Shown: in pieces, positions 478-16,551 of the stretch
Layout of the letters: every line of letters starts with the position of its first letter
Position numbering within the stretch: the stretch's first letter is position 1
From: Firmicutes bacterium HGW-Firmicutes-4
Lineage (GTDB): Bacteria; Bacillota; Clostridia; Eubacteriales; Eubacteriaceae
Reading direction: 5' to 3'
Assembly: GCA_002841405.1 (NCBI GenBank)
Contig: PGZR01000007.1
Location: 1-43,878 of the forward strand
DNA length: 43,878 bases
Notes under the pieces: model-generated
The model's database searches: none
What the model was told of the DNA's origin: nothing
What the model saw: the letters and a program-made list of their open reading frames with translations, nothing else
Program-made: the position numbers and the translations under genes

Positions 478-597
478 TGTTCTTGAGAATACAAACAGTT
501 TGGATATTTTTTGGAATAGTTTCACAGAGGATGAATAAAAAAGCATTCAATTGGTATAAAGAAAGGGCAGTTGTTTAACAAAAAAGCAATAGACAGA

Positions 598-620
598 ACA
601 GTGAAAATAGAATACACTGT
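598..620. promoter_or_regulatory. Inverted repeat, possible operator upstream of the RiPP operon
   Basis: ACAGTG at 598-603 and CACTGT at 615-620 are perfect inverted copies separated by 11 A/T-rich bases. The site lies just upstream of the candidate promoter of the RiPP operon in an otherwise gene-free stretch (478-689). It could be a regulator binding site, but a 6-bp repeat in AT-rich DNA can occur by chance. Confidence 0.25.
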
Positions 621-689: not shown

Positions 690-785
690 GTGAAAACGAT
701 CAACTTGAAACTGATGCTTATTCATCGCGGAACCCGGACCCATTCAATCACCCAAATTGAGCCGATTGGCCATATGAGCTGTTAA
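690..785 (+). pseudogene. Severed N-terminus of the first B12-radical SAM gene
   Basis: GTG at 690 has a strong ribosome site (GGAG at 679-682, seven bases away), yet its frame stops at TAA 783-785 after 31 codons. The peptide begins with LKLMLIHRG, which resembles the first strand of the B12-binding domain of the sister enzymes (compare EVLLVYTQR in the protein starting at 8487). The homologous protein then continues in another frame: codons from 761 onward read into PYELLRGLEFLEATG and then GLYCDYEN, matching the middle of the same domain. Compared with the sisters, about 20 residues between these two segments are absent. The simplest reading is a frame-breaking deletion near 770-785. An assembly error is the alternative. 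Confidence 0.55.
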
Positions 786-829
786 GAGGGCTGGAATTTC
801 TGGAAGCGACCGGATCGGACGAAAATACC

Positions 830-3800
830 GTGGTGGGTTTGTATTGTGATTATGAGAATCAGTCAGCAGTTGAAAGTTTTTCCAGAGAAATAAAAAAGCG
901 TTACGGCGCCACCGTTTTTGTGGGCGGACCCCAGACGGTGGGGTTGGGTGAAGAATTTTTGCGCGCCAGCCAGGCCGATGCAATGATGCGGGGAGAAGGG
1001 GAGTATTCCCTCTACGAAGCGATTCACGCCATTCAAAATGAAGAAATCGAAAAATGGGAAATGATACCAGGACTGTGTTCATTCCGCAATGATGGCAGTT
1101 ATTATGATAATGGCATTTATCCAGCCATTGAGAATTTAGACGAGCTGCCGATTATTACCGGGACAATTAAATCCGCCCAGCATCAGGGCATTAATCATAT
1201 GGCAGTCATGTCAGGACGTGGGTGTCCTTTCCACTGCTCTTTTTGTTATGAGGGCGGAAACAGCAAGAATGTCCGGCGCCGCAGTGTTGAAAGCGTGATG
1301 AAAGAAATCCGCTGTCGGCTGAAACAAAACCCCAATGTGAAGTATATCTTTTTCGGAGATGATACCTTTACGCTGGATAAAGAACGGGTGCGAACCTTTT
1401 GCGAACAACTCAAAGAGCTGCGGAAAGAACACGATTTTGTCTGGTTCGCCGATGCCCATGTCAATATTGTGATTAAATATCCGGAAATTGTAAAAATGAT
1501 GGTGGACGCTGGTCTGGTCCGGATGCAGATCGGGATTGAAAGCTGTAATCAGCATATCATTGATATCTATAACAAGAAGATCAAACGGGAAGGGCTTTTT
1601 GAAGTGATTGCGATCTGTCAAGCCGCCGGATTGCCCCAGCTGGTTGGTAACATCATTATTGGCGGAGCCCTGGAAACCCGGGAAACCCTGGATTTTACCT
1701 TTGATACGGTCAATGAAATGATCAAAGCCGGCCGGGGCATGGTAGAGGTGGTCAGCACCTTCTATATGCCTTTCCCGGAAACTGCAATGTCTAAAGATCC
1801 GGAAGCCTTCGGGATTTTTGTGAAGGATGAACAAGCGTTGACATCGGTGGGAGACTTTCCGGTGATTGAAACCGCAACCCTGAGCATCGAAGAAATCTGC
1901 GCCGCCCGGAATGAGTTTTTTGAAATGAATATCAAATTGATGCGAAAAATGCTCAGTGACGGCGAAATTCCTGATGCGGTGATTCTGGAAAGCTATCTCC
2001 TCAGTGAAAAATACGGCCTCAGTGGGATGTGGCAGGGACTGGCCTATTCCCGATACCCTTATTTTGATGCCCAGTACAAGGCCCGGATCCGGGGCGACAA
2101 GCTGACCAGAGATTATCAAGGCGAAGCGGTGTTTGAGACGCACCCCCAGCGCATCGCTTTGCTTTCCCTGACCCCTGAGTTGGCGGCAGAAATTCCGGTG
2201 TTAAACGGATTTGTTTATTCCCCCTTTGAATTTGAGGTTTTAAAATACTGCTCCGGAAAATTGACCATCAACGAGATGGCAGCAATACTTTTTTCGGCAT
2301 ATCAGAACAGCTTTGAGAGCTTTGAGGTGTTTAAGCAGCATCTGCTGGCGACCATCAAAAAACTGGAAGCTGTCGGGATGTGTGTCTTGTCAGGATCGCT
2401 GACTGCCACAGCGACGGATCAAGAATGGGAGCAACGGGGAAAAACAGAGGGAAAAGAAGTTGAGGATACCGTGAAAAATAAGTTCATTCTTTTTAAACTA
2501 TCAACCATCGGGATGGAAATTGCCGGCTTCAGCAGAAATGGCGCCTTTCTGGGCATTTATGGCCTGGCAAGCTACCTGGATTCCAAAGGTTATGACGCCA
2601 TTGTCTGCGAATGTCGCCCGGATCAGGCCATCGATTATCTGAAGCGCTACCCCTTTAATGAAATTTGTGGGATCGGCTTTTCGGTGGATTTTGAAAATAA
2701 GCACGTGGTTAAAAAAGTCAGTGCAGCAATTACCGAAACCTATCGGATTCCGGTATTGATTGGCGGACCGGAAGCGATTTCTCTGGATGAAGATTATCTG
2801 CGCCAGTCCCAAGCGGCAGCGATTGTCAGGGGCGAAGGCGAACTGGCGATGGTAGCGGTTCTGGAAGCTTTTAAAAAACAGCAAAGCCTGGATGGAATCC
2901 CCGGAATCTTTTATATTAACGAAGCGGGCGAGGGCATCGATATGGGCGAAGGTCCGGTGGTGGAAAATCTCGATGATCTGCCCTTTCCGGCCTATGATAA
3001 AAGCATCACCCCGATTGATTTTTCCAGCCTCTATCTGATGAGCAGCCGGGGTTGTCCCTATCACTGCGTTTTCTGCCATGAAGGGGCCTTGAAACGGCCG
3101 ATGCGGCAGCGGAGTGTGGCTAACGTCATCGCTGAAATGAAACATTTTCTGCTTAAATATCCGGAACTCAGTTATTTTAAGTTCTGTGACGACACCCTGG
3201 TTACCGATCCTAAATGGCTGGATCAGTTTTGTCGGGAGGCCAAAGCCCTTCAGGCCGTGAAGCCCTTTCAGTTTTATTGTGAGGCTGATGTGGTGTCCTT
3301 AAGCCGACGCCCAGAAGTACTGAGGTTGATGGTGGCTGCCGGCCTGAACCGGCTTCAAATCGGCATTGAAACCGTCGATAAGGAGATGCTAAAAATTTAC
3401 CGCAAAAATATTTCTCCGGAAATGGTGGAAATCGTCGTGAAAGCGGCCTATGATGCCGGGGTTCAGCAGGTCTTTGGCGCGCTGCTAGTGGGTGGTCCCT
3501 TTGAAAATCGGGAACATATTGAAAAGAACAAGGCTTTTGGGGCCAAGCTGCTGCGATTGGGCCCGGGGATGATGGAAATTGCCCCCAGTATCGTAATGCC
3601 TTACCCAATGACCGATATAGGCCTGCACCCCGAAAAATACGGACTGACGATTTACGACAGGCAGGGTCTCGGTAGTATTTCCGACTATCCGATTATGGAT
3701 AGTGAAACCATGGATCGCCGGGAGATCATGGGGGCCTATCAGGAATATCTCCAGAGTTTTGTGGATGAGGTGAAAATCATGCTAAACGACGGGGAATTGG

Positions 3801-4237
3801 GTCACGAAGATATTTTAAGATGCTACAAAACATCGATGGCCTCCAACGGACCCAAATACTGGATTAATATTATTTCCCACCATAAGCCGACCTTGACCGC
3901 CTATTACACCATGCTGGCCCGGGAATCCGCCAGTCGGGTAATTGATGTGGATCCAGCCGAACTGCCCAACTGGCGACCCCAGCGGATGATTGAAATGTGG
4001 CGGGATGTCGATTTCTCCCAGGGCTATCCGCTGTTATGGGGCGAGGCACTGTCACCCTTTGAATACGAAATCATGAAATACTGCACCGGCAAAAGCACCA
4101 TCGCCGCCATTACGGACATCCTATATGAGCGATTTGGAAAACCATTTAACGAAAGTCCCAATGAATTAAGGGAACGGATCATTGCGACGCTGAAAGTTTT
4201 TGATAAAAAATACTGGCTGCTTGTTGTTCCGTTCTAG
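830..4237 (+). CDS. Tandem B12-binding radical SAM enzyme (two modules in one protein), N-terminus damaged
   Basis: Two complete enzyme modules sit in one chain of about 1135 residues. Module 1 has a partial B12-binding fold (VGGPQTVG), a radical SAM core with the cluster motif CPFHCSFC (Cys132, 136, 139) and a C-terminal helical domain ending near residue 530. Module 2 repeats this: B12-binding fold from about 550 (VLIGGPEAIS), CPYHCVFC (Cys742, 746, 749) and a closing domain (about 1065-1135) with LSPFEYEIMKYCTGK. Enzymes of this class use a [4Fe-4S] cluster, S-adenosylmethionine and cobalamin, commonly to C-methylate RiPP cores. The GTG at 830 is only the first possible start after the frame break; it has no good ribosome site, and the frame is open back to 761. 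Module 1 may therefore lack the front of its B12 domain or be poorly translated. Gene 4253 follows after 15 bases. Confidence 0.85.
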   Translation: MVGLYCDYENQSAVESFSREIKKRYGATVFVGGPQTVGLGEEFLRASQADAMMRGEGEYSLYEAIHAIQNEEIEKWEMIPGLCSFRNDGSYYDNGIYPAIENLDELPIITGTIKSAQHQGINHMAVMSGRGCPFHCSFCYEGGNSKNVRRRSVESVMKEIRCRLKQNPNVKYIFFGDDTFTLDKERVRTFCEQLKELRKEHDFVWFADAHVNIVIKYPEIVKMMVDAGLVRMQIGIESCNQHIIDIYNKKIKREGLFEVIAICQAAGLPQLVGNIIIGGALETRETLDFTFDTVNEMIKAGRGMVEVVSTFYMPFPETAMSKDPEAFGIFVKDEQALTSVGDFPVIETATLSIEEICAARNEFFEMNIKLMRKMLSDGEIPDAVILESYLLSEKYGLSGMWQGLAYSRYPYFDAQYKARIRGDKLTRDYQGEAVFETHPQRIALLSLTPELAAEIPVLNGFVYSPFEFEVLKYCSGKLTINEMAAILFSAYQNSFESFEVFKQHLLATIKKLEAVGMCVLSGSLTATATDQEWEQRGKTEGKEVEDTVKNKFILFKLSTIGMEIAGFSRNGAFLGIYGLASYLDSKGYDAIVCECRPDQAIDYLKRYPFNEICGIGFSVDFENKHVVKKVSAAITETYRIPVLIGGPEAISLDEDYLRQSQAAAIVRGEGELAMVAVLEAFKKQQSLDGIPGIFYINEAGEGIDMGEGPVVENLDDLPFPAYDKSITPIDFSSLYLMSSRGCPYHCVFCHEGALKRPMRQRSVANVIAEMKHFLLKYPELSYFKFCDDTLVTDPKWLDQFCREAKALQAVKPFQFYCEADVVSLSRRPEVLRLMVAAGLNRLQIGIETVDKEMLKIYRKNISPEMVEIVVKAAYDAGVQQVFGALLVGGPFENREHIEKNKAFGAKLLRLGPGMMEIAPSIVMPYPMTDIGLHPEKYGLTIYDRQGLGSISDYPIMDSETMDRREIMGAYQEYLQSFVDEVKIMLNDGELGHEDILRCYKTSMASNGPKYWINIISHHKPTLTAYYTMLARESASRVIDVDPAELPNWRPQRMIEMWRDVDFSQGYPLLWGEALSPFEYEIMKYCTGKSTIAAITDILYERFGKPFNESPNELRERIIATLKVFDKKYWLLVVPF

Positions 4238-4252
4238 AAAAAGGGTAAAATA

Positions 4253-5965: not shown

Positions 5966-5990
5966 CCAAAATATTTTCAGGAGGAAGAAC

Positions 5991-6260
5991 ATGAGTATTG
6001 ATGGAGCAAGAGCATTGGCCGCAAAAGTATTAATTGATGAGGCGTTGGATAAGCAAATCAAAGCTGCTAAAACTGAAGCAGAATTTGATGCAGTTGTTGC
6101 AAGATTGGGTTATAGTTGTTCTGCTACTGAATTCATTGCCGCTTTTAAAGAAGCACAGGCAAAACAACCGATAAGTGATGAGGAATTGGATCAAGCTGCG
6201 GGTGGGACATCAATGATTGGATTCGACTACCCGTTTGTCATGACACCAATTGTGCCCTAA
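5991..6260 (+). CDS. Nif11-type RiPP precursor peptide 1
   Basis: An 89-residue peptide with a helical, Ala/Glu-rich leader typical of Nif11-like leaders: MSIDGARALAAKVL at the start, then EFDAVVARLGYSCSATEF, and QPISDEELDQAAGG at 59-72. The double glycine at 71-72 is the expected cut site of the C39 peptidase exporter encoded downstream. The predicted core is TSMIGFDYPFVMTPIVP (17 residues), with no Cys, two Thr, one Ser and several branched or methionine side chains. The ribosome site is strong (AGGAGGAAGAAC before ATG). The leader matches precursor 2 at 60 of 72 positions, whereas only 6 of 17 core positions match, the usual pattern of paralogous precursors with different products. Confidence 0.9.
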   Translation: MSIDGARALAAKVLIDEALDKQIKAAKTEAEFDAVVARLGYSCSATEFIAAFKEAQAKQPISDEELDQAAGGTSMIGFDYPFVMTPIVP

Positions 6261-6378
6261 ACCGAATTGTATTCGATAACGGGTGATCGCTATAAAACAG
6301 GCCGAATTCCATGGAAAATTAGTTGATATTCTGTATCAATTTAATTTTAAATATTGGCTGACGCATTTTGTGATTTAG
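6261..6378 (+). pseudogene. Remnant 3' end of the B12-radical SAM gene left by duplication
   Basis: This stretch is a copy of the last 40 codons of the gene ending at 5965. The first part still reads TELYSITGDRY, against TELFTIFGGPY in the parent, then loses frame. From 6299 the DNA is nearly identical to the parent and includes the same TAG stop (6376-6378). It has no start and cannot make an enzyme. It now forms the region between the two precursor genes; whether it keeps a regulatory role as leader of precursor 2 is unknown. Confidence 0.85.
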
Positions 6379-6405
6379 CCAAAATCTTTTAAAAGGAGGA
6401 AGAAA

Positions 6406-6678
6406 ATGAGTATTGATGGTGCAAAAGCATTAGCCGCAAAAGTATTAACAGATGAGGCTTTGGCAAAACAACTTGATGGTGCTAAAACTGAAGCAGAATT
6501 TGATGCAGTGGTTGCAAAATTGGGTTACAGCTGTACTGCAGCTGAATTTGATGCTGCGTTTAAAGAAGCACAGGCGAAACAACCAATCAGTGATGATCAA
6601 CTGGATCAGGCTGCTGGTGGCTTAAGTATTGTTGGCGTGGATTACGCATTTACAGCAACACAAACAGCTCGAGCTTAG
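6406..6678 (+). CDS. Nif11-type RiPP precursor peptide 2
   Basis: A 90-residue paralogue of the peptide at 5991. The leader runs from MSIDGAKALAAKVL to QPISDDQLDQAAGG with the same AAGG processing site at 69-72. The predicted core is LSIVGVDYAFTATQTARA (18 residues). Both cores share the pattern S-[MI]-[IV]-G-[FV]-D-Y-[PA]-F at their start and differ beyond it, so the front of the core is the likely common target of the modifying enzymes. A strong AAAGGAGGAAGAAA site precedes the ATG. The gene arose by tandem duplication with its neighbour. It is followed by two competing hairpins before the next enzyme gene. Confidence 0.9.
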   Translation: MSIDGAKALAAKVLTDEALAKQLDGAKTEAEFDAVVAKLGYSCTAAEFDAAFKEAQAKQPISDDQLDQAAGGLSIVGVDYAFTATQTARA

Positions 6679-6686
6679 TAAGTAAA

Positions 6687-6748
6687 GAAGGGGATTTTCC
6701 CCTTCGAAGTGTTGACTGAATGGCTCAGAGTCAGCACTTCAAAGGGGG
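6687..6748 (+). promoter_or_regulatory. Two mutually exclusive hairpins covering the ribosome site of the next enzyme gene
   Basis: Hairpin A pairs GAAGGGGA (6687-6694) with TCCCCTTC (6698-6705), eight perfect pairs around a 3-base loop. Hairpin B pairs 6699-6717 with 6729-6747: GAAGTGTTGACT pairs with AGTCAGCACTTC (one G-T wobble), then one mismatch, then CCCCTT with AAGGGG. The two hairpins share CCCCTTC, so only one can form at a time. Hairpin B also pairs the AGGGGG Shine-Dalgarno of the gene starting at 6760. No U-tract follows, so it is not a canonical terminator. It likely tunes enzyme synthesis relative to precursor, or protects the precursor mRNA end. Confidence 0.7.
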
Positions 6749-6759
6749 AAGAAAAAGAT

Positions 6760-8511
6760 ATGGATATATTGCTCGTCAAATCACACCGCTATGTCAGCGG
6801 TTATATTCCCGGCAGTAATCTGGGGATGAATATACTGACCCAACTATTAAGGCAAAAGGGATATCAGGCCGAGATGTTTCAGGGCTATGCCAAAGAAGCG
6901 TTGGATTATGTCATCGCTGTGATGGAAACAGAGGACAAACCCAAAATTATCGGCTTTTACTGTGATTTTAACAATATTCACTGGGTCAAAACCTTTGCCC
7001 AGGAGGTCAAAAAGCGGTATCCCGAGGTGATTCTATTGGCTGGGGGTCCGCAGACAGCGGGGATGGACGCTGAATTTTTAAGGGATAACGCCATCGCAGC
7101 AGCCTGTATCGGTGAAGGGGAAGAGACGATCCTGGAGCTGATGGATTATTTTATAAACAGGAAGGGTTCACTCGAAGCGATTCAGGGAATTGTGTTCCTT
7201 GATGAAACTGGTGCCCTGGTGGAAAATGAGCCGAGAAAGCCGCCGGAAGAACTGGATGCGATTCCCTGGCCCGACATCACCCTGACCAATGATTACAAAC
7301 ATTTTGGCCTGCTACCGATCTTGACCGGCCGGGGCTGTCCTTTTGGCTGTACCTTCTGCTATGAAGGTGCCAATGCCAAACGGGTTCGCCGGCACTCCGT
7401 GCCATCGCTGATGGACGAAATCAGAGCCAATTTCAAACGCAATCCAGCGATTAATTATATTAACTTTCTCGATGATACCTTTACCCTGGATCATAAGCGG
7501 GTCAATCAGATTTGCGAAGAAATCAAAGAAATTCGCAAGGATTATGATTTTGTCTGGTTTGCCAGCGCCCATATTTCCACCATTGACAAACACCGGGAGA
7601 TGGCCCGGAATTTGGCCGAGGCTGGTCTGAAAAAGATTTTTTTTGGATTGGAGTCCGGCAGTGACCAGGTTTTAAAGAGCTATAATAAAAAAATAACCCG
7701 TAAAATGGCGGTGGATGTCATTGACCACTGTGTTGAATCAGGGATTCACGGCATTTCCGGCAATATTATTATTGGTGGGCCTCATGAAACCCGGGATACT
7801 ATCGCGGAATCCGAAGATTTGATTATGGAACTGCTTTACCTGGCGCCAGGTCAGTTCGAAACCGCATATTTTTCATTTTTACCTTATCCCAAAACCCCCA
7901 TCACCCTCAATCCGGAAAAATTCGGAATGGCCATCTATGAGGATCTGATTGACTGCTGTAATGAGGATATTCCCCTTTCCCGCACTAAAGAACTAGATTT
8001 TACGGACCTGATTAATATTCGTTTGCAGGCTAACAAACGGCTTCAGAATGAAATGCGCAAAATTTATTTTGATGGCAAAATTCCCGAAGCGGTAATTCTG
8101 GATTCCTACCGGTTGGGCCGTCAGTATGGTGTTTTTACCCGTTGGAATGACTATGTCTATAAGAATATTCCGATCGATGATGCCTACTGGAAAATGCGGG
8201 CCTCGGATCAGTATCTTATTAATGCTCAATTGGGAAGCAATGATGAAGCGGCGATTGTCCACCGTACCTTTGAACTGTGGCTGTACACCGATGTCAGCGG
8301 TGAAAAACCGCAGATATTCGGACAGGTATTGGATGAAATCGACTATACCCTGCTAAAATTATGTAATGGCAAGCTTTCCAAAAAAGAAATTCTGCAACAG
8401 GGAAGAATGAAACTGGATCCCCAGGGAAAAAATGCTGATTTCTACCACCAGGCGGAGCAATCCCTGAACAAAATGGAGGGGCATAAGTGGATTTTATACC
8501 GGAAGCCATAA
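6760..8511 (+). CDS. B12-binding radical SAM RiPP-modifying enzyme
   Basis: A 583-residue single-module enzyme. The start is placed at ATG 6760 because AAAGGGGGAAG lies just upstream and MDILLVKSHRYVSG is the expected first strand of a B12-binding domain; an upstream in-frame GTG (6709) lies inside the hairpin and adds 17 unlikely residues. The B12 domain carries LAGGPQTAGM. The radical SAM core has GRGCPFGCTFC (Cys193, 197, 200) followed by YEGANAKRVRR. The C-terminal domain retains YTLLKLCNGKLSKKEI, the same PqqD-like pattern as in its sisters. It overlaps the next gene by 25 bases, which implies coupled translation. Its substrate is presumably one or both precursors encoded directly upstream. 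Confidence 0.88.
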   Translation: MDILLVKSHRYVSGYIPGSNLGMNILTQLLRQKGYQAEMFQGYAKEALDYVIAVMETEDKPKIIGFYCDFNNIHWVKTFAQEVKKRYPEVILLAGGPQTAGMDAEFLRDNAIAAACIGEGEETILELMDYFINRKGSLEAIQGIVFLDETGALVENEPRKPPEELDAIPWPDITLTNDYKHFGLLPILTGRGCPFGCTFCYEGANAKRVRRHSVPSLMDEIRANFKRNPAINYINFLDDTFTLDHKRVNQICEEIKEIRKDYDFVWFASAHISTIDKHREMARNLAEAGLKKIFFGLESGSDQVLKSYNKKITRKMAVDVIDHCVESGIHGISGNIIIGGPHETRDTIAESEDLIMELLYLAPGQFETAYFSFLPYPKTPITLNPEKFGMAIYEDLIDCCNEDIPLSRTKELDFTDLINIRLQANKRLQNEMRKIYFDGKIPEAVILDSYRLGRQYGVFTRWNDYVYKNIPIDDAYWKMRASDQYLINAQLGSNDEAAIVHRTFELWLYTDVSGEKPQIFGQVLDEIDYTLLKLCNGKLSKKEILQQGRMKLDPQGKNADFYHQAEQSLNKMEGHKWILYRKP

Positions 8512-10190
8512 TTAACAAACCCGAAGTTCTATTGGTCTACACCCAACGGATGGTCCGGGGCCGGACCTTTGAAATGATCGAAAATCTGGGGATTTTGACC
8601 CTGGCGGCGCAACTCAATGCCAATGGTTTTGACGCAAAAACCTATACTGGCATTACTACCGACGCGGTAAAAACCATCGAAAAAATGAAAGACCGCCTGT
8701 TTGCGGTCTGTTTTTACTGTGATTTTGATAATCGCTCAGCGGTGGCGGCCATCAGCAACTATTTAAAAAAGCATTATGATTTTTATGTGGTAGTGGGAGG
8801 CCCTCAGACCCTGCATATGACCGAAGAAGAGCTGGACATTTATCAGGCTGACGGAATTCTAAAAGGTGAAGGTGAAGAGAGCCTGTTAACCTGGTTGGGT
8901 GCCAGGGCCCGGGGTGAAGAGGTGCTTGTTCCGGGAGAACTTCGTAAATCCCAAAATGCCGATTACGTCTACCTGGAAGATTTTTCAAAATACGAATTGC
9001 CCCGCAACGAAGATGTGCTTAATTATCAGGAACGACCGCTGTTGTCGGTGATTACTGCCAGGGGCTGTCCCTATCGCTGTGCCTTTTGCTTTGAGGGCGG
9101 AAATTCTAAAAACTTGCGGATGCGAACCGCGGAAGCGGTGCTGGACGAAATAGCAGCCCGTTTAAAAAACAGTCAACGACCGCGATACCTGTTTTTCTGT
9201 GATGATACCTTCACCACCAATCCAGTTAGATTAAAAAAGATCTTAGCCGGTTTGCGAACGCTTCGAAAAAAATATGATTTTGTCTGGTTTTGTGAAGGCC
9301 ATCCCGGGTTTTTGGTAAAGCATCCGGCACTGATTCGCGAAATGATTGACAGTGGCATGGTGCGGATGCAGATCGGGATGGAGTCAGGGGTGGACGATGT
9401 GCTGAAAGCCTATGGCAAACAGGCCAGCTCCGCGGACATAAAAAGGGTGGTGGAGATCTGCTACGCTGAAGGATTACCCCAATTAACCGGAAATTATATT
9501 ATTGGCGGAGCCTTTGAAACAGCGGTAACCCTGGCCGAGACCACTAAAACAGCCCTGGCGCTGCTGGACCTGGCACCGGGGATGCTGGACTTATCAACAA
9601 CCTTTATGATGCCCCTGCCCGGCACCCAGATTTATAATCATCCCGAAAAATTCGGGATTGTTCTGGAAGACCGGGAATGCCTGACCAACCTGGAGGATTT
9701 TCCGGTCAACCATACTCAAGCGCTGTCACTGCCGGAAATCTGTATGGGTCGCTCCCGGTTTATTACGGCCGTCTCCAACAAAATGAAGGAACAGTTTGAA
9801 AAAGGTCTGATTCCCCAAGAACGGATTAAAGCCGACTTCAACCTGGCCTTTAACTATGGTATTGCGGCCGGATACCTTAAATTTATTTATGCCAAAGACG
9901 CGATCATGATAGCGTACTACAAAAAATTGATTGAGTACAGAGGCCTTTTGAAAGAATGGCATGAGCTTAGTGAGGAAGAAAGAAATACCTGGATTATCCA
10001 CAAAATCCCGGATTTTTCGATGTTGGATCTGAACACTCTCAGTCAAACCGAAGTTGAGATTCTCAGTTATTCGGGGCGATTTGCCAGCACTGAAATGGCA
10101 GAAAAATTGAATTTGTCTGCCGGGGACCTAAAAAAGTTGTTGTTGAAAATGAGTGACGAGCATTTGATTTTATTTTCAGCATTTATTTAG
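8487..10190 (+). CDS. B12-binding radical SAM RiPP-modifying enzyme
   Basis: A 567-residue protein starting at GTG 8487, inside the end of the previous gene, with GGAGGGG (8475-8481) as ribosome site. The N-terminal B12-binding domain includes EVLLVYTQR and VVGGPQTLHM. The radical SAM core has ARGCPYRCAFC (Cys194, 198, 201). The C-terminal domain (about 510-567) is the least conserved of the set: SQTEVEILSYSGRFAS lacks the C-x-GK pattern seen in the others, so if that domain binds leader peptide, this copy may differ in specificity or depend on a partner. The position as last modifying gene, just before the export genes, fits a dedicated RiPP operon. Confidence 0.87.
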   Translation: MDFIPEAIINKPEVLLVYTQRMVRGRTFEMIENLGILTLAAQLNANGFDAKTYTGITTDAVKTIEKMKDRLFAVCFYCDFDNRSAVAAISNYLKKHYDFYVVVGGPQTLHMTEEELDIYQADGILKGEGEESLLTWLGARARGEEVLVPGELRKSQNADYVYLEDFSKYELPRNEDVLNYQERPLLSVITARGCPYRCAFCFEGGNSKNLRMRTAEAVLDEIAARLKNSQRPRYLFFCDDTFTTNPVRLKKILAGLRTLRKKYDFVWFCEGHPGFLVKHPALIREMIDSGMVRMQIGMESGVDDVLKAYGKQASSADIKRVVEICYAEGLPQLTGNYIIGGAFETAVTLAETTKTALALLDLAPGMLDLSTTFMMPLPGTQIYNHPEKFGIVLEDRECLTNLEDFPVNHTQALSLPEICMGRSRFITAVSNKMKEQFEKGLIPQERIKADFNLAFNYGIAAGYLKFIYAKDAIMIAYYKKLIEYRGLLKEWHELSEEERNTWIIHKIPDFSMLDLNTLSQTEVEILSYSGRFASTEMAEKLNLSAGDLKKLLLKMSDEHLILFSAFI

Positions 10191-10222
10191 TTTAAGAATT
10201 ATACAAATGTAAGGAGAAGGCT

Positions 10223-11365
10223 ATGAAAAAACACCTTATGATCTTATCGATCTTATTGATTGGCCTGGTGTTTTGCTTTGGCTGCACAGCAGAAACTGCC
10301 AAAACCAACACCCTGTCGGTGGATGTGGTTTATCCATTCTCGCAGGAGTACAGTGAGTCCTTCAAAAATGGCATCGAACTGGCTGCCAAGGAGATCAATG
10401 AGCAGGGCGGGATCCTCAATCATACCATCGCAATCAATTACAATGACGATGGTAATAACACCAATACCGCCGTGGAAGTAGCTACCAGAATTGGCGAAAA
10501 TCCGGGTTTTCCGATTGTCATCGGACATCGGAGCACCGATGATGTGCTAAAGGTGGGGAGCATCTATAACCAGAATAATAAGCTGCTGTTCGCACCGATT
10601 ATCGCCAGCTCGAAACTGAATCTGGCTGAGAATGAGGGCGCCTATCTCTGCGCGCCGTCGGATGATGCTATGGCCAGTGAAATGGTCAATAGTATGGCTG
10701 TTCAGGGCATCCGCCGGATTGCCGTTGTTCATACCGCCGGCAATACCTATGGCAAAGATTATATTCAAAAAGTTGAAGAACATGCTGGGGAAGCCGGCAT
10801 TGAAATTGTTGATGCCGTGTCTTATCTGCCAAATCTGGATTATTTTCGTTATTATCTAAAAAAATGGGACAGTCTGGGCGCTCAGGCCATCGTTACCGCC
10901 TGTGTCGGCGAGGATATCACCGCGCTTTATGGGTATCTGGAAAAAACCGGCAATACCCGGCCAATTTTTGCCAGCTATGACATTGAGATTCAGCCCTATA
11001 TAATTCCCCAGAGCATGAAAAGCCTGACTCAGGTCACCAGTTATTTTAACAATACCGCCACGGCGGGTTCCGAAGCGTCATTTATTCAGGCTTATCAACA
11101 GGCCTATGGGAAGAATCCCGATTTACCGGCGGCTCAGGCCTACATGAATATGCACCTGGCGGCAGCCGCGGCGAACCAGGCCCAGAGTCTGGACGTAGCG
11201 GCCCTTAAAAAGGTGCTGGGAGAGAACAGTTTTGATACCATCTATGGCAGTTTAAGCTTTGATAAACGCCTGATCGAGGGGATTCCGGTGTTCCAGAAGA
11301 TCTATGTCAATGATCAATTGGTGCCCAGGGACAATTTGACGGGGGGAGGACAGGGTAGTGAGTAA
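10223..11365 (+). CDS. Substrate-binding lipoprotein, branched-chain amino acid-binding (type 1 periplasmic-binding) family
   Basis: A 380-residue protein with a lipoprotein signal peptide: charged MKKH, a hydrophobic stretch and the lipobox FCFGC with Cys at residue 21. The mature part has the LivJ-like fold signature: a first strand followed by SFKNGIELAAKEINEQGG, then VIGHRSTDDVL, a second lobe beginning RRIAVVHTAGNTYGKDY, and the closing region about 350. Such proteins normally deliver amino acids or other small ligands to an ABC importer, but no importer permease lies nearby. It sits 32 bases after the last modifying enzyme and overlaps the HlyD-like gene by eight bases, so it belongs to the RiPP operon. 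It may sense or capture the extracellular peptide, or act in immunity; these roles are inference. Confidence 0.85.
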   Translation: MKKHLMILSILLIGLVFCFGCTAETAKTNTLSVDVVYPFSQEYSESFKNGIELAAKEINEQGGILNHTIAINYNDDGNNTNTAVEVATRIGENPGFPIVIGHRSTDDVLKVGSIYNQNNKLLFAPIIASSKLNLAENEGAYLCAPSDDAMASEMVNSMAVQGIRRIAVVHTAGNTYGKDYIQKVEEHAGEAGIEIVDAVSYLPNLDYFRYYLKKWDSLGAQAIVTACVGEDITALYGYLEKTGNTRPIFASYDIEIQPYIIPQSMKSLTQVTSYFNNTATAGSEASFIQAYQQAYGKNPDLPAAQAYMNMHLAAAAANQAQSLDVAALKKVLGENSFDTIYGSLSFDKRLIEGIPVFQKIYVNDQLVPRDNLTGGGQGSE

Positions 11366-12182
11366 ATCCATTTTTAAAAATAAAGAGGATAAAAGCACCA
11401 AGAAAAGTGAACATGCAGCCCTGATGACGGTCATCGGTCCGGGGAATTTGCTGATATTGCTGGGGATTATTATTTTTTTAGTCGGTGTGATTATTTATTC
11501 GATTACCGTTCCCATTAATATCACCACCACCTTGGACGCGGTGGTATCTTATGGCGAAGGAACCGCCCAAGTGGTGGTTGAAAATGAAGGGATCTTATCC
11601 CAGCTCAGTGTCTCCAATGGCGATTATGTTAAACGGGGCGATCTGCTGGGTGTACTGACCACCGAGGAGACCGCAGCTCTGATCACCAGTGGGGCAGTTT
11701 TAACTGATCAGGAAAAAAGCCTGGTTAAACGACAAACGATGATTGTCGCCATGGAAAGCGGTGTGGTGGCTGACCTGCGTTTTCAGGACGGCGCATTCTT
11801 GCCTAAAAACAGCACCTTGTGTCAAATTGTCAAACGGGAGAACGAAGAAACCACAGTGGTGGTACTGGCTTATTCCAGCTATGAACAGGCGATTAATGTT
11901 AAACAGGGGGACCGGGCGTTTGTAGCGGTGGAATCGGCATCCACCGATGAGTACGGATATTTAAGAGGGATTGTGCGAAGTGTCCAGCTCAGCGGTTTGT
12001 CTCAGGATCAGGGAAGTCCCATCGAAATGCAAATCATCATCGATCCCAAGGTAGATGATCAGGGGAATTATATCTGGACCAAAGAAAACAATGGTTTCAG
12101 TGGTGAGATTACCGCTGGGACCTCCGCCAGTGCAACGATTTTCACCGATCAGTTATATCTCATTGATTTGATTATCTCTTAG
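11358..12182 (+). CDS. HlyD-like membrane fusion protein of an NHLM-type RiPP export system
   Basis: A 274-residue protein beginning at GTG 11358, overlapping the previous gene by eight bases and preceded by GGGGGGAGG. After a short basic tail there is one membrane helix (about residues 28-52, NLLILLGIIIFLVGVIIY). The rest lies outside the membrane and looks like a shortened HlyD/biotinyl-lipoyl adaptor: VVENEGILSQLSVSNGDYV is the lipoyl-type hairpin, and ESGVVADLRFQDGAFL is its second half. These adaptors pair with the two ABC transporters of the nitrile-hydratase-leader/Nif11 microcin systems, whose genes follow immediately. It is short for an HlyD protein, consistent with a Gram-positive host without an outer membrane. 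Confidence 0.85.
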   Translation: MSKSIFKNKEDKSTKKSEHAALMTVIGPGNLLILLGIIIFLVGVIIYSITVPINITTTLDAVVSYGEGTAQVVVENEGILSQLSVSNGDYVKRGDLLGVLTTEETAALITSGAVLTDQEKSLVKRQTMIVAMESGVVADLRFQDGAFLPKNSTLCQIVKRENEETTVVVLAYSSYEQAINVKQGDRAFVAVESASTDEYGYLRGIVRSVQLSGLSQDQGSPIEMQIIIDPKVDDQGNYIWTKENNGFSGEITAGTSASATIFTDQLYLIDLIIS

Positions 12183-12199
12183 AAAGGCGGTATAGACTC

Positions 12200-14401
12200 A
12201 TGACGAATTCAGAAACCGAGAAAAGTCGGGATGAGCACGAAAAACTGCCTAAAATAGCTAAGGTACCGGTAGTGCTGCAAATGGAAGCAGTAGAGTGCGG
12301 GGTAGCATCGCTTTCGATGATTCTGGCCTACTATGGGCGCTACGAAACCCTGGAGACACTCCGGATTGATTGCGGGGTCTCACGGGACGGGGTAAAAGCC
12401 GGAAATATTGCCAGAACAGCCCGACTTTACGGCCTCGAGTCCCAGGGCTTTGTCTGTACCGTAGATAAGTTAAAAGAAATGACGATGCCGGTGATTATTC
12501 ACTGGGATTTCAGTCATTTTGTCGTCCTGGAAGGGTTTAAAAATGACAAGGTTTATTTGTGCGATCCGGCTTCGGGACAACGGGTAATCACTGCGGAAGA
12601 ACTGGGACAGATGTTTACCGGGGTGGTGATTGAGTCCCGACCGGGACCGGATTTTAAAAAGGCCGGGGAAAAGCCCGATGTCTGGAAGGCGCTTTTTAAA
12701 CGGCTATCCCAAACCGGGATTTCACCCTTGCTTTATGCCCTGGTGCTGGGGGTGCTGCTGGTTATTCCCGGTTTGATTATTGCCAATTACGCCAAAATAT
12801 TTGTCGACTATTACCTCAACAACACCGAAAAATTTGATATTTTGATTTTTGTTTTTATTTTGCTAAACACCGTGGTACTCCAGGCCATTCTTAACTGGCT
12901 GAAGGAGAACGCGCTGGTGCGGATGGAGAACTATATTGCTATCGACAGTGCCGGCACCTATCTTCGTCATGTTCTGCGGTTGCCGGTGGAGTTTTTTAAT
13001 CAGCGCCAATCCGGGGATATCAACAGCCGGATGCAAAGCATCAATACCGTGGCAACCGCGCTGTCTTCTAATCTGGCCCGTATTCTGGTTAATCTGGTCA
13101 CGGCTTTTTTATACCTGATTCTGCTTTTTCAATATAATGTCATTTTGACCCTGATTGGTATCGTCATCACCGGGATCAACATCTTTCTGCTGCAATACAC
13201 AGCCAAAAAGAATGCTGATAACAACCGGGTGCTGCTACAGTATCAGGGCAAATCGATTGGCTGGATCATGGTTAATCTCAAATCCATCGAAACCATTAAA
13301 TCAATTGGCGAGGAAGACAATTTCTTTACCCGCATCGCTGGTCTCAGTGCCGAAACCCTGGCGGTGGAACAGCGTATGGGTCGGATTGAAGCCGTTATTT
13401 CGGTGCTGCCGACCCTGCTGACGGCGATCTTAACAGCTCTGATCTTTACTATCGGTAGTGAGTACGTATTAATGGGAACCATGACCATTGGGACCTTCGT
13501 GGCCTTTAATACGCTGATGACTGGCTTTACCCAGCCAATGAGTGAGCTGGTTAGCACCAGTGCCGCCTTACAGGGGATGATCGCCGATATTGCGCGTCTC
13601 GATGATGTCGAAAAATATCCGGAAGATATCGCCCTGGAGTCGGAAAAAATTTCATTGGATGGATTTGACTGTGATCAATTAGAAGGCGAGATTGAGATTC
13701 GGGATCTGACCTTTGGCTATAACCGACTCTCAGACCCGATTATTCAGGGCTTGAACCTGACCCTCCGGGCCGGTGGTTCGATCGCCCTGGTCGGTTCATC
13801 GGGAAGCGGCAAATCGACCATTGCCAAAATGATAACCACCCTTTACCAGCCCTGGAGCGGTGAAATACGCATTGATGGGATTAATATCAAGGATATTCCG
13901 GCTGAGCTGCGGGTCAATACGATGAGCTCGGTCGATCAGGAAATCGTGATGTATTCAGCCTCAGTGCTGGATAACATTACCATGTGGGATGAAACCATTG
14001 CGGTCGAGGATGTTATCCAGGCCACCAAAGATGCCTGTATCTATGAGGATATTCTGGCTTTGCCCAACGCCTTTGACCACATTTTAAGCGAAGGCGGAAA
14101 AAACTTAAGCGGCGGGCAGCGACAGCGACTGGAAATCGCCCGGGCCTTATGCAAAAATCCCCGGATCCTGGTGATGGATGAGGCCACCAGTGCGCTGGAT
14201 ACGGCCACCGAGGCCGAGGTCAGTGAAAACATCCGGCGCCGCGGCATCAGCACTATTCTGGTGGCCCACCGGTTATCAACGATTCGCGATTGTGATGAGA
14301 TCATCGTACTGAGCTGCGGGGTTGTCAAAGAGCGCGGCACCCATGAAGAATTGATGGCTTTGGGCGGTGAGTATGCAAGTCTGATCAGAACTGAGGGATA
14401 G
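12200..14401 (+). CDS. Peptidase-containing ABC exporter (C39 protease, membrane domain, ATPase)
   Basis: A 733-residue bifunctional exporter. Residues 20-150 are a C39 cysteine protease: catalytic Cys33 in MEAVECGVAS, His106 in SHFVVLEGF and Asp122 in CDPASG, all present. It should cut the precursors after the GG of AAGG during export. A six-helix membrane domain follows (about 170-460), then an ATPase with Walker A GSSGSGKST (about 530-540), signature LSGGQRQRLE (about 635) and Walker B ILVMDEATSALD (about 655). Length and layout match the first ABC protein of NHLM-type systems. It lies 17 bases after the adaptor gene and two bases before the second ABC gene. Confidence 0.93.
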   Translation: MTNSETEKSRDEHEKLPKIAKVPVVLQMEAVECGVASLSMILAYYGRYETLETLRIDCGVSRDGVKAGNIARTARLYGLESQGFVCTVDKLKEMTMPVIIHWDFSHFVVLEGFKNDKVYLCDPASGQRVITAEELGQMFTGVVIESRPGPDFKKAGEKPDVWKALFKRLSQTGISPLLYALVLGVLLVIPGLIIANYAKIFVDYYLNNTEKFDILIFVFILLNTVVLQAILNWLKENALVRMENYIAIDSAGTYLRHVLRLPVEFFNQRQSGDINSRMQSINTVATALSSNLARILVNLVTAFLYLILLFQYNVILTLIGIVITGINIFLLQYTAKKNADNNRVLLQYQGKSIGWIMVNLKSIETIKSIGEEDNFFTRIAGLSAETLAVEQRMGRIEAVISVLPTLLTAILTALIFTIGSEYVLMGTMTIGTFVAFNTLMTGFTQPMSELVSTSAALQGMIADIARLDDVEKYPEDIALESEKISLDGFDCDQLEGEIEIRDLTFGYNRLSDPIIQGLNLTLRAGGSIALVGSSGSGKSTIAKMITTLYQPWSGEIRIDGINIKDIPAELRVNTMSSVDQEIVMYSASVLDNITMWDETIAVEDVIQATKDACIYEDILALPNAFDHILSEGGKNLSGGQRQRLEIARALCKNPRILVMDEATSALDTATEAEVSENIRRRGISTILVAHRLSTIRDCDEIIVLSCGVVKERGTHEELMALGGEYASLIRTEG

Positions 14402-14403
14402 AG

Positions 14404-16551
14404 ATGGCAAAAAAATTAGAAGAGATCCGACAGATCAATAAAAAGTATGATAACAGCGCCAAAAAAGCCTTTGACAGCGTTTTATCCCCCAAAAAATCGG
14501 CGGCATCCCAGGATGATAACCCGCTGATCGCGGCGGTGATTAAGGTCGCCGAGGCAATGGGAATTGTCGTAAAAATTCCGCCCCTGCGTAAGCTTAATAG
14601 CGGTGGTGATCAATTTAAACTGATCGCCGATGAATCGGGATTTCGCATTCGTCAGGTGGAGTTAAAAGCCGATTGGTATAAAAACGACAATGGCCCGATG
14701 CTGGCCTTTACCATGACTGGAGAGCCAGTCGCTCTGATCCCCAAATCCCCAACCCGCTATCGGTGCTTTCGTGCTGATGGGGGATCTCAGGAAGTTGATG
14801 GCCAGTTGGAATTCGACCGGGCTTATGTTTTTTACCCACCCTTGCCCAAAGAACCAGTATCTTTTTTAGATATGATAAAATTGGGATTAAAACTGTTCCG
14901 GCGGCGGGATCTGGTCTGGACCCTGGTGCTGGCAGTGATGACCGCGCTGCTATCGCTGTTGCCGGCAATGGCCATGCAGGAGACCTTCAATGTCTGGATT
15001 CCCCAAAATCAATCGGTGACGATTCTGGTGGTGGGATTTATTCTGGTGGCTGTGGCCATCAGTCGAGGTCTGTTTACCATGGTTCAAAACATCTGTATTC
15101 TCCGTATTCAGGGCAAATTGTCGATTTTGCAGAATTCGCTGCTGGATAAACTGTTATCGCTACCGGCTTCATTTTTTAAACAGTATTCATCGGGAGCGTT
15201 GGCCATGCGGGCCACCGGTTTTGCGATGATTCAGAAGATTTTATCGGTTAACGTGATTACGATGATCATCACCAGCTCTTTTTCGATTATCAATGGATTT
15301 TATATTTTTACCATCAATCCCACCATTGGCTGGATTGCCATGGCTTTAACCGCGGTCAGCGTGGCGATCACCCTGGTCATCGGAAAAATGCAAATGAAAT
15401 GTCAACGTATCTCGCTGGAAATGTCCAATGATATTTCAGGGATGGTGTTTGAGCTGATCACTTCGGTTTCGCGGCTGCGGGTGGCTGGAGCCGAAAGTCG
15501 CTCCTATCTGAAATGGGTCCGGGAGTATGCCAAACAGCGAAAAGTGGAGTATAGAAGAGGACAGCTGATGGCGCTGTTGCGGTTAACGACCATTGCCCTG
15601 CCGACCCTGTCAATGTGCGTGATCTATTATTATGTGAGTATCAACAGCATTTCTTCCGGGGGCTTTGTTGCCATCAATTCGGCTTTTGTTATCTTTATAT
15701 CCTCGCTGCTGGGCCTGGTGCAAACCTTGATTTCCATTAACAGCGTGGTGCCCCAGTATGAAAATACCAAACCGATTATTGATGGGGTTCCGGAGGTGGA
15801 TTGTTTTAAAACGACACCGGGAAAAATTCAGGGGGATATCGATATAAAGCACCTGTACTTTTCCTATTACGAAGGCGGTGCAACGATTCTCGACAATATT
15901 TTTATCAATATCAAACATGGCGAATATGTGGCCATTGTTGGAGCTTCCGGCAGCGGTAAATCAACTCTGTTGCGGTTGCTGCTGGGTTTTGAAAAACCGA
16001 CCAGTGGTAGTATTTACTGTGGCGGATTTGATCTGGAAAGTGTCGATATCCGGGAAATCAGAAAGCAAATGGGGGTGGTGCTCCAGGACAGTCAACTGAT
16101 CCCTGGTGATATCTTATCCAATATCGCCGGCTCAAAAAAAGAACTGACCGAAGAAGATGTTTGGGAATTGCTTAAAAAAGTCGGCATGGATGAAGAAATT
16201 CGGGAAATGCCCATGGGTCTTAAAACCATGGTGGCGGAGGGGGCCGGAACCCTGTCCGGGGGCCAGCGGCAGAAGTTGCTGATCGCCAGAGCCATTGCTG
16301 CCAATCCGGCGATTATCTTTTTTGATGAAGCCACCAGCGCCCTGGATAACCGCTCCCAGAAGACTGTCTCGGAAAGTATGAAAAATCTTGATGCCACCCG
16401 GATTGTCATTGCCCATCGGCTCAGTACGATCATGGATTGTGATCGGATTCTGGTCCTGGAAAAGGGCAACATCGTCGAAGCTGGTACCTATGATGAACTG
16501 ATGAAAAAAGAAGCTTATTTTTATAAATACGCCAAAAGACAGCTGGTCTGA
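14404..16551 (+). CDS. NHLM-type ABC transporter, permease and ATPase, without peptidase domain
   Basis: A 715-residue half-transporter. The first 150 residues are soluble and do not contain the C39 catalytic residues; they may be a degenerate N-terminal domain. A membrane domain spans about 160-440 (start LVWTLVLAVMTALLSLLPAM). The ATPase has Walker A GASGSGKST, signature LSGGQRQKLL and Walker B IIFFDEATSALD, all intact. NHLM clusters typically carry this second ABC protein next to the peptidase-containing one, perhaps as a heterodimer partner. The start codon is two bases after the preceding stop. A strong terminator at 16569 ends the operon. Confidence 0.9.
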   Translation: MAKKLEEIRQINKKYDNSAKKAFDSVLSPKKSAASQDDNPLIAAVIKVAEAMGIVVKIPPLRKLNSGGDQFKLIADESGFRIRQVELKADWYKNDNGPMLAFTMTGEPVALIPKSPTRYRCFRADGGSQEVDGQLEFDRAYVFYPPLPKEPVSFLDMIKLGLKLFRRRDLVWTLVLAVMTALLSLLPAMAMQETFNVWIPQNQSVTILVVGFILVAVAISRGLFTMVQNICILRIQGKLSILQNSLLDKLLSLPASFFKQYSSGALAMRATGFAMIQKILSVNVITMIITSSFSIINGFYIFTINPTIGWIAMALTAVSVAITLVIGKMQMKCQRISLEMSNDISGMVFELITSVSRLRVAGAESRSYLKWVREYAKQRKVEYRRGQLMALLRLTTIALPTLSMCVIYYYVSINSISSGGFVAINSAFVIFISSLLGLVQTLISINSVVPQYENTKPIIDGVPEVDCFKTTPGKIQGDIDIKHLYFSYYEGGATILDNIFINIKHGEYVAIVGASGSGKSTLLRLLLGFEKPTSGSIYCGGFDLESVDIREIRKQMGVVLQDSQLIPGDILSNIAGSKKELTEEDVWELLKKVGMDEEIREMPMGLKTMVAEGAGTLSGGQRQKLLIARAIAANPAIIFFDEATSALDNRSQKTVSESMKNLDATRIVIAHRLSTIMDCDRILVLEKGNIVEAGTYDELMKKEAYFYKYAKRQLV

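What the first reader, a model, noticed from the sequence alone, without database searches (positions are those of the whole stretch)
830..16551. RiPP locus with five B12-radical SAM modules for two short Nif11-type precursors
Seen: two Nif11-like precursors (leader ends AAGG; cores of 17 and 18 residues), four genes encoding five B12-binding radical SAM modules (five CX3CX2C motifs), a C39-protease exporter with intact Cys/His/Asp, an HlyD-like adaptor and a second ABC protein, all on one strand with tiny gaps. Known: B12-radical SAM enzymes often C-methylate RiPP cores, and Nif11 leaders are cut at double glycine. Inference: a peptide with dense C-methylation or other carbon-centred changes, made without lanthionine, heterocycle or epimerase enzymes. 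I do not recognise a described product with this gene set.
Basis: partly seen in the sequence, partly recalled or inferred. Interest (0 to 1): 0.88.

Follow-up and report, generated by a model that had tools for sequence, protein, structure and literature searches.

The report
Conserved five-enzyme radical peptide factory
A gene set in acetate-making bacteria makes a short peptide with a nearly unchanging main sequence and probably reshapes it with five related vitamin-B12 radical enzymes; the same set occurs in unrelated anaerobes, so the unknown product may have one conserved job rather than being an ever-changing antibiotic.

Summary
The locus is real: an Acetobacterium operon with two Nif11-leader RiPP precursors, four genes for five CX3CX2C B12-radical SAM (B12-rSAM) modules, and a C39/HlyD/ABC exporter. 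Corrections: gene 1 starts at 690, and a 55-bp frameshifting deletion (or assembly error) at 775/776, absent from 13 of 13 relatives, removes the start of module 1's B12 domain.

New here: (1) The main precursor's core begins LS[IL]VGVDY[AT]F in every Acetobacterium-type, Ca. Formimonas, Thermoclostridium-MAG and Synergistota locus where a precursor was seen. In a far relative (G385; enzymes about 40% identical) it is LTFVGIDYAF. Duplicate precursors vary more. (2) Each of the five modules has its own counterpart in G385 (supported clades for four; narrow reciprocal best hits for mod1), so they look like five long-separated specialists. (3) Exporters are swapped or missing between lineages; enzymes plus core are the constant part.

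Multiple C-methylation is the likeliest chemistry but unproven: B12-rSAMs also cross-link aromatics, and the main core keeps Tyr-x-Phe. The cluster is in print as an antiSMASH 'bacteriocin' cluster (PMC6925170), without core or module analysis in the passages I saw. New variant of a known kind.

The parts
590..618 (+). sigma-70-like promoter TAGACA-N17-TACACT upstream of gene 1
   Evidence: TAGACA-N17-TACACT or -TAAAAT in 10 of 13 sequences scanned (window included; absent in L018, L021, L023) and in L038; absent in L011, of which 179 bases are held: 11 of 15 in all
690..4237 (+). gene 1: fused double B12-rSAM (mod1 + mod2); true GTG start 690; frame broken by a 55-bp deletion at 775/776; the ORF resumes from GTG 830
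   Evidence: orthologues of 1194-1200 aa in 13 named loci and 1193 aa in L038
4253..5965 (+). B12-rSAM module rS2 (570 aa)
   Evidence: Pfam B12-binding 54.9 and Radical_SAM 65.7 bits; AlphaFold model pLDDT 82, pTM 0.76; Foldseek matches MgmA, TsrM, AprD4, CysS, OxsB, TokK
5991..6260 (+). precursor 1 (extra, divergent type), Nif11 leader + core TSMIGFDYPFVMTPIVP (core 6207-6257)
   Evidence: TIGR03798 43.5 bits; sister core ITLVGIDYPFVMTPIVP in L015
6298..6378 (+). duplicated 3' tail of the rS2 gene, left by the tandem duplication of the precursor region
   Evidence: 27 codons at 96%, 26 codons at 100%; DNA alignment of the two copies
6406..6678 (+). precursor 2 (principal, conserved type), Nif11 leader + core LSIVGVDYAFTATQTARA (core 6622-6675)
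   Evidence: TIGR03798 45.1 bits; one precursor with this kind of core in each of the 19 loci compared (chosen for that core where a locus has several) and in 4 further Synergistota
6760..8511 (+). B12-rSAM module rS3 (likely ATG 6760; mechanical GTG 6709)
   Evidence: Pfam B12-binding 54.2, Radical_SAM 87.1; L009, L013 and L018 orthologues begin at about the same place
8487..10190 (+). B12-rSAM module rS4, overlapping rS3
   Evidence: Radical_SAM 64.1; B12-binding 24.5, below cut-off
10223..11365 (+). substrate-binding protein (Peripla_BP_6, LivJ-like), putative lipoprotein (by eye); in the operon of Acetobacterium-type loci
   Evidence: 148 bits; present in 13 of 17 sequences mapped (12 of 16 relatives and the window), not matched in L018, L021 and L023; L022 ends before this place
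11358..12182 (+). HlyD-like secretion adaptor
   Evidence: TIGR03794 64.8 bits, below the 156.2 cut-off; HlyD_3
12200..14401 (+). C39 peptidase / ABC exporter (NHLM_micro_ABC1)
   Evidence: TIGR03796 902.9 bits over 853.3
14404..16551 (+). second NHLM ABC permease/ATPase (NHLM_micro_ABC2)
   Evidence: TIGR03797 768.9 bits over 709.4

Best explanation
This is a RiPP pathway with one main, fixed product rather than a combinatorial one. A Nif11 leader brings a nearly constant core (principal form LSIVGVDYAF followed by a looser tail) to five B12-radical SAM modules. Each module is a long-separated specialist that probably changes one or a few carbon centres of the core: C-methylation most likely at several sites, possibly with a carbon cross-link involving the conserved Asp-Tyr-x-Phe. 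In Acetobacterium the leader is then cut after GG by the C39 exporter, and the peptide leaves through the HlyD/ABC machinery. Purifying selection on the core suggests one conserved target or role (signal, cofactor-like compound, metallophore or narrow bacteriocin); some genomes add freer duplicate precursors. Shown: gene set, core conservation, probable module orthology, gene neighbourhoods. Inferred: order of reactions, chemistry, cleavage, export, function. In the window's own genome the pathway may be impaired by the deletion in module 1.
For: Precursor and exporter families over curated cut-offs. In 20 principal precursors nonsynonymous changes are 4.9% of codon differences in core 1-10 against 39% in the leader; 631 of 100,000 random 10-column sets are as constant; of 77 contiguous 10-codon windows only those starting at 71-73 (core) and one at 8 (leader) are. 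The choice of one precursor per locus does not make this: the 16 loci with a single precursor give 6.5% against 40%, 933 of 100,000, and the same windows. The far relative G385 keeps LTFVGIDYAF with a leader identical at 25-29 of 72 columns to the four compared. Supported clades join G385 m2, m3, m5 and m6 to mod2, rS2, rS3 and rS4; m4 and mod1 are reciprocal best hits in the loci compared; m1 is extra. Locus in 18 of 19 genus genomes at least in part and an orthologous gene 1 in 6 of 185 genomes of the Synergistaceae MAG's phylum. Six other Nif11 precursors read from four of these genomes have unrelated cores.
Against: No reaction of any module is known; all curated B12-rSAM families match far below cut-off. 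When four duplicate precursors are added (24 in all) the core signal weakens: nonsynonymous share 20% against 41%, 6,952 of 100,000 random sets as constant, 15 of 77 windows as low, most of them in the leader. A count of variable amino-acid columns (36 of 72 leader, 4 of 15 core 1-15) is not significant (Fisher p 0.15); core 11-15 varies as much as the leader. Divergent extra cores exist (TSMIGFDYPFVMTPIVP, ARGIDFYENSIW), so the enzymes tolerate some variety. In the first tree, with two distant outgroups, the mod2-m2 join was unresolved and rS2-m3 was 93/80. The pairing of mod1 with m4 beats that with m1 by only 2-41 bits. G385 has no GG and no NHLM C39 exporter over cut-off, so cleavage and export are not universal.
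Confidence: 0.62

Rival explanations
1. All five modules are C-methyltransferases and the product is simply a densely C-methylated peptide, as in polytheonamides or clavusporins.
For: Peptide B12-rSAMs ApyD (Tyr C-beta) and PoyC/PoyB (Val, Ile, Met; PMC11285071, passages) methylate carbons. ApyD is the best-scoring family for rS2 and second for gene 1, though under cut-off; it is third for rS3 and ninth for rS4. Core residues I, V, Y and F are suitable targets. No other tailoring family was recognised in the ten proteins.
Against: HpnJ scores higher than ApyD for gene 1, rS3 and rS4, and BchE close to ApyD for rS2; BchE forms a ring (PMC13331322, passages), HpnJ's chemistry is only recalled as non-methylating. 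In the profile alignment the residue at the position of OxsB Asn186 (cobalamin lower face) is an Asp, invariant in 31 of 31 module sequences, and the column of the TokK/CysS Trp is Asp, Glu or Asn, so the lower face differs from two solved methyltransferases. PbsB shows that a peptide B12-rSAM can cross-link aromatic residues at i,i+2.
Confidence: 0.4
2. At least one module makes a C-C cross-link or other oxidation at the conserved Asp-Tyr-x-Phe, giving a macrocycle; the others methylate.
For: In the 19 principal cores G5, D7, Y8 and F10 are constant; PbsB precedent on an F-x-F pair; lower-face Asp.
Against: PbsB acts on ortho-hydroxylated Phe made by an MNIO, and no MNIO family was found among the ten proteins. 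The second G014 core (ARGIDFYENSIW) lacks the Tyr-x-Phe spacing.
Confidence: 0.35
3. It is an ordinary narrow-spectrum bacteriocin with the substrate-binding protein as immunity or sensing part.
For: antiSMASH labelled it bacteriocin (PMC6925170, passages); NHLM exporter; substrate-binding gene inside the operon in Acetobacterium-type loci; freer duplicate precursors.
Against: The main core hardly varies between species and phyla, unlike NHLP/Nif11 products whose C-terminal ends vary considerably (PMC4289311, section 10; PMC2887384, passages). The substrate-binding gene was not matched in L018, L021 or L023. I recognised no dedicated immunity gene, but did no search for one.
Confidence: 0.3
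4. In this genome the cluster is decaying: the 55-bp deletion makes module 1 non-functional and the second precursor is a by-product of duplication.
For: Frameshift seen in the window and in 0 of 13 relatives with the region.
Against: The rest of the 1135-codon frame has no further lesion; the assembly is in 225 contigs at 86% completeness, so an assembly error is possible; L015 has a similar extra precursor in frame.
Confidence: 0.4

Closest known systems
Acetobacterium 'bacteriocin' cluster of antiSMASH (PMC6925170; passages seen)
   Same: Very probably the same locus: Nif11 precursor, HlyD, four rSAM genes (two annotated B12-binding), in A. woodii and three further Acetobacterium species.
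   Different: In the passages seen, listed only as gene names; no core, no five modules, no relatives outside the genus.
Nif11/NHLP natural products with NHLM export (Haft 2010, PMC2887384, passages; Letzel 2014, PMC4289311, section 10 read)
   Same: Leader family TIGR03798 and export proteins TIGR03796/TIGR03797. Letzel lists clusters in anaerobes with several radical SAM proteins and cores of 14-18 residues (Dtox_0942, Dtox_0947, Dhaf_0108); their sequences were not held, so kinship is unknown.
   Different: There the cores vary considerably and are rich in Cys/Ser/Thr; here the main core is nearly constant and has no Cys, and the modifiers found are all B12-rSAMs.
ApyD of the aminopyruvatides (PMC10635010, passages; PMC11002830, passages)
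   Same: Peptide-acting B12-rSAM with a fused RRE; acts on a Tyr near a second aromatic residue; NF050148 is among the better HMM matches.
   Different: 201 bits over the two modules of gene 1, 114 for rS2, 99 for rS3, 35 for rS4, against a cut-off of 750; one module, not five; different partners.
PbsB of biphenomycin-like peptides (PMC12257519, passages)
   Same: B12-rSAM acting on an aromatic pair at i,i+2 of a motif-conserved core.
   Different: Acts on MNIO-hydroxylated Phe; no direct sequence comparison with PbsB was run.
PoyB/PoyC of polytheonamide (PMC11285071, passages)
   Same: B12-rSAM C-methylation of Val, Ile and Met in a RiPP.
   Different: Proteusin family; PoyC has a CX7CX2C motif, here CX3CX2C; two enzymes, not five; epimerase, dehydratase and N-methyltransferase partners.

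Membership tests
Nif11-leader RiPP precursor (TIGR03798) | HMM score over the curated cut-off (32.3 bits) | tested here: met
   43.5 and 45.1 bits in the window; 35.7 in G385
Nif11-leader RiPP precursor (TIGR03798) | leader ending in a GG cleavage motif | tested here: met
   AAGG in both window precursors; not present in the G385 precursor
Nif11/NHLP natural product with a hypervariable core | core varies far more than the leader | tested here: not met
   core 1-10 changes less than the leader in the 20 principal, 16 single-precursor and 24 all-copy sets, though weakly in the last; core 11-15 varies at least as much as the leader
NHLM export system (Haft 2010) | TIGR03796 and TIGR03797 over cut-off | tested here: met
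   902.9/853.3 and 768.9/709.4 bits
NHLM export system (Haft 2010) | TIGR03794 HlyD over cut-off | tested here: not met
   64.8 against 156.2 bits
B12-binding radical SAM enzyme | N-terminal B12-binding domain plus Radical_SAM with CX3CX2C | tested here: met
   mod2, rS2 and rS3 pass Pfam for both; rS4 B12 domain below cut-off; mod1 B12 domain cut by the deletion in the window; model of rS2 matches B12-rSAM structures
RiPP maturation radical SAM C-methyltransferase (TIGR03975) | score over 281.85 bits | tested here: not met
   121.8, 74.8, 94.4 and 29.3 bits for the four genes
ApyD (NF050148) | score over 750 bits | tested here: not met
   201.2 (two modules), 113.7, 99.5 and 35.3 bits
peptide C-methyltransferase activity | +14 Da on the core | not testable with these tools
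   needs co-expression and mass spectrometry
RRE (PqqD-like leader-binding domain) at the C terminus of the modules | PqqD/RRE fold or profile match | tested here: inconclusive
   Foldseek of the 80-residue domain (model pLDDT 77): the RREs TbiB1 and PqqD take ranks 3-6, 8 and 9 with TMq 0.56-0.68 but E 0.64-2.3, none at E <= 0.001; Pfam PqqD in 1 of 14 members at E 0.077; no relevant PDB sequence match

The most novel reading that the evidence does not exclude
A conserved, secreted, carbon-modified peptide of fixed structure, made by a dedicated set of five B12-radical SAM enzymes and shared across acetogens, Synergistota and other anaerobes. It would serve as a signal, metallophore or cofactor-like compound rather than a toxin: a Nif11 counterpart of the fixed-product peptide cofactors PQQ and mycofactocin (those parallels are recalled, not from a call).
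Probability: 0.25. Interest if true: 0.85.

Novelty: new variant of a known kind. Interest (0 to 1): 0.62.

Why it matters
Five specialised B12-rSAM modules on one roughly ten-residue conserved core would be an unusually dense system for studying how related radical enzymes divide one small peptide among them. A RiPP whose main core stays put while leader, enzymes and exporter drift points to a conserved function, contrary to the usual description of Nif11 products, and it can be tested in cultured, genome-sequenced Acetobacterium strains (L009 DSM 11527, L013 DSM 1911, L017 DSM 8237, L019 DSM 8239, L020 DSM 9173).

Tried and rejected
Redundant copies of one enzyme: set aside, because each module groups with, or is reciprocal best hit of, its own counterpart in G385. 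Sigma-54 regulation: set aside; of 15 sequences searched, the sigma-54 regulator upstream (window 1-477) lies beside the operon only in the window and L009, no -24/-12 site matched in 14 upstream regions, and a sigma-70-like pair is found in 11 of 15. Link with the MttB/BCCT genes upstream in L009: matched in L009 only of 15 sequences, but the window's contig starts too close to tell and L011 holds only 179 bases there. Plasmid carriage: no match in PLSDB at E 1e-50. Core motif elsewhere: the pattern for VG[VI]DYAF in 391 class genomes hit 7, of which 4 are genus members and 3 unrelated frames (two permease-like proteins and one frame opposite a longer ORF). Outside the genus, 42 family and order genomes had only remote B12-rSAMs (best E 5e-33). 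Phylum sample of 398: only G000 and G385 at E 1e-60. Order (9) and class (82) of G385: only G385 itself. Four of the ten hits in the phylum of the Synergistaceae MAG (G981, G987, G932, G969) hold a related module; no precursor of this type was seen in the fetched pieces, but that look used a simple motif filter and one piece is a 4.6-kb contig. My recollection that ApyD makes a biaryl bond was wrong; it methylates Tyr and the P450 makes the bond. I recalled clavusporins before searching; the library holds only three papers that mention them.

Dropped rows: L025 (23% partial match) was left out of the interpretation. 'Principal' precursors were chosen for their LSIVGVDYAF-type core, so five further precursors (window precursor 1, L013 second, L015 first and third, L038 second) were left out; four of them were put back, where the core signal weakens; the L038 one has a shorter leader and was never counted. 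G385 was left out of the codon statistics because its leader has 71 residues, and L082 and L084 because their N termini differ. The outgroups L006 and L008 were removed from the second tree because of long branches. L009 rS3 and rS4, and the later Synergistota loci L081-L084, are not in the trees. L011 was left out of the promoter scan and tested (no match). Two other Nif11 precursors of G459 (L067, L071) were not read out.

Full report
Observation. The window is contig C155 of a 3.73-Mb, 225-contig genome held as G000, 86% complete. Its nearest named relative by this locus is Acetobacterium dehalogenans DSM 11527 (94% over module rS2). Both precursors pass the Nif11 leader model and the two ABC proteins pass the NHLM export models. 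Five CX3CX2C motifs lie in four genes. Three things need correction. The first gene starts at GTG 690 and not at 830, as 13 of 13 relatives with upstream DNA show. In the window this gene lacks 55 bp at 775/776 relative to L009, which breaks the frame and the start of module 1's B12 domain; this may be a real deletion or an assembly error. A substrate-binding protein gene (10223-11365) sits inside the operon and was not mentioned; it was matched in 13 of 17 mapped sequences, window included.

Relatives. One scan of 84,980 species genomes with rS2 returned 17 loci. Sixteen are true relatives at 76-94% identity: Acetobacterium species and MAGs, Ca. Formimonas warabiya (complete genome), a Thermoclostridium MAG, a Synergistaceae MAG and less precisely named MAGs; L025 at 23% is not. 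Within the genus, 16 of 19 genomes give a near-full-length match to gene 1, G018 gives it in two pieces and G005 keeps the downstream part of the operon at a contig end; only G016 lacks it. No locus was found in the 42 family and order genomes searched. In a 398-genome phylum sample only G385 answers besides the window's own genome at E 1e-60. In 185 genomes of the phylum of the Synergistaceae MAG (no kinship told), 10 match at E 1e-60, of which 6 carry an orthologous gene 1 (five at 75-78%, one of them cut by its contig end; G1041 at 51%) and 4 only a related module. Five of these genomes share their own gene order, precursor-rS3-rS4-[mod1-mod2]-rS2, one of them with rS2 beyond the contig end, so contamination is an unlikely explanation of the Synergistaceae hit.

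The main core is conserved. In each of 19 loci compared one precursor reads LS[IL]VGVDYAF or, in G385, LTFVGIDYAF; four more Synergistota read LSIVGVDYAF (two) and LSIVGVDYTF (two). These 'principal' precursors were picked for this core where a locus has several. Over 20 of them aligned without gaps, nonsynonymous differences are 4.9% of codon differences in core 1-10, 39% in the leader and 54% in core 11-15; 631 of 100,000 random sets of ten columns are as constant, and of 77 contiguous ten-codon windows only those starting at 71-73 and one at position 8 of the leader. With only the 16 loci that have a single precursor, where no choice was made, the figures are 6.5%, 40%, 62%, 933 of 100,000 and the same windows. 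With four duplicate precursors added they are 20%, 41%, 62%, 6,952 of 100,000 and 15 of 77 windows, so the signal weakens. A plain count of variable amino-acid columns (36 of 72 leader, 4 of 15 core 1-15, 18 precursors) is not significant (p 0.15). G385 adds weight: its leader is 25-29 of 72 identical to the four leaders compared while seven of the first ten core residues are unchanged. As a control, six other Nif11 precursors read from G000, G458, G459 and G460 have unrelated cores; two more in G459 were not read. Extra precursors, in the window and in L013, L015 and L038, keep G-x-D-[YF].

The five modules look like five specialists. In a maximum-likelihood tree of 39 module sequences, G385 modules m3, m5, m2 and m6 join rS2, rS3, mod2 and rS4 with ultrafast bootstrap 100 and SH-aLRT 99-100. 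m4 lies next to mod1 at an open fork; its best hit is mod1 in all five loci compared and mod1's best hit is m4 in all seven, by 2-41 bits over m1; m1 is extra. Long branches meet in the mod2-m2 and mod1-m4 joins, as the program warns, and an earlier tree with two very distant outgroups left mod2-m2 unresolved and gave rS2-m3 93/80. Gene order in G385 by these assignments is m1-mod2-rS2-precursor-mod1-rS3-rS4.

Enzyme type. The rS2 model (pLDDT 82, pTM 0.76) matches solved B12-rSAMs and the related AprD4, best MgmA, TsrM, AprD4, CysS and OxsB. In the profile alignment the invariant Asp63 (31 of 31 module sequences) falls on OxsB Asn186, and the column of the Trp in TokK and CysS is Asp, Glu or Asn here (the roles of these residues are from PMC13331322, passages seen; that TokK's Trp is this very column is my reading of the alignment). 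This is a hint, not proof, that the lower face differs from TokK and CysS. A C-terminal domain of about 80 residues resembles RRE structures (TbiB1, PqqD) without statistical support.

Export is exchangeable. Acetobacterium-type loci carry SBP-HlyD-C39-ABC2 as far as their contigs reach. Formimonas and the Synergistaceae MAG carry other NHLM-like exporters nearby (35-41% identical). In the fetched pieces of L081-L084 only one short ABC match was seen. The Thermoclostridium genome has NHLM exporters over cut-off only on other contigs; G385 has none over cut-off and no GG in its precursor, with a papain-like protease gene beside the cluster.

Literature. The cluster is in print as an antiSMASH bacteriocin cluster of Acetobacterium (PMC6925170, passages). 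I found no product or analysis of it in nine searches of an open-access library; the papers were seen as listings and, for eight of them, as passages or one section. Peptide B12-rSAMs with known chemistry include a Tyr C-beta methyltransferase, Val/Ile/Met methyltransferases and an aromatic cross-linker, so C-methylation is the likeliest but not the only expectation.

Verdict. A real, widely shared RiPP pathway with an unusual combination: a nearly frozen main core and five separate B12-radical SAM specialists. Its chemistry and function are unknown and can be tested in cultured strains.

Noticed in passing
L048 and L049 (unnamed class members G524, G822): A permease-like membrane protein (looks like the AI-2E family, recalled) contains LSIVGIDYAFV, nearly the RiPP core; probably coincidence favoured by the pattern search.
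   Followed up: partly
G000:C131:38973-45698 (same genome, another contig): A second Nif11 precursor (core GCTVYVGTIF after GG) next to another NHLM exporter, of which the C39 protein is over cut-off.
   Followed up: no
L039 3358-4773 (G005): A reverse-transcriptase ORF that looks like a group II intron protein (by eye) sits inside the C39 exporter gene of this genus member.
   Followed up: no
L040 6026-7240 minus (G385): A papain-family protease gene is divergently placed beside the divergent cluster, whose precursor lacks GG; a candidate alternative leader protease.
   Followed up: partly
L038 12071-12313 minus (G014): Second precursor with core ARGIDFYENSIW, a natural variant that keeps G-x-D-aromatic but loses Tyr-x-Phe.
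   Followed up: no
window 16660-43576: Downstream genes look unrelated: RelA/SpoT-like (by eye), GGDEF/EAL proteins, beta-lactamase-like protein, FdhD, AraC, EamA, ChW-VanY, fumarase-like lyase, baeRF protein, hybrid histidine kinase (ten proteins scanned).
   Followed up: no
L088, L089 and L090 (G932, G969): Other clusters in the Synergistaceae MAG's phylum with one related B12-rSAM beside further large ORFs; G969 has two such places with the same match scores.
   Followed up: no
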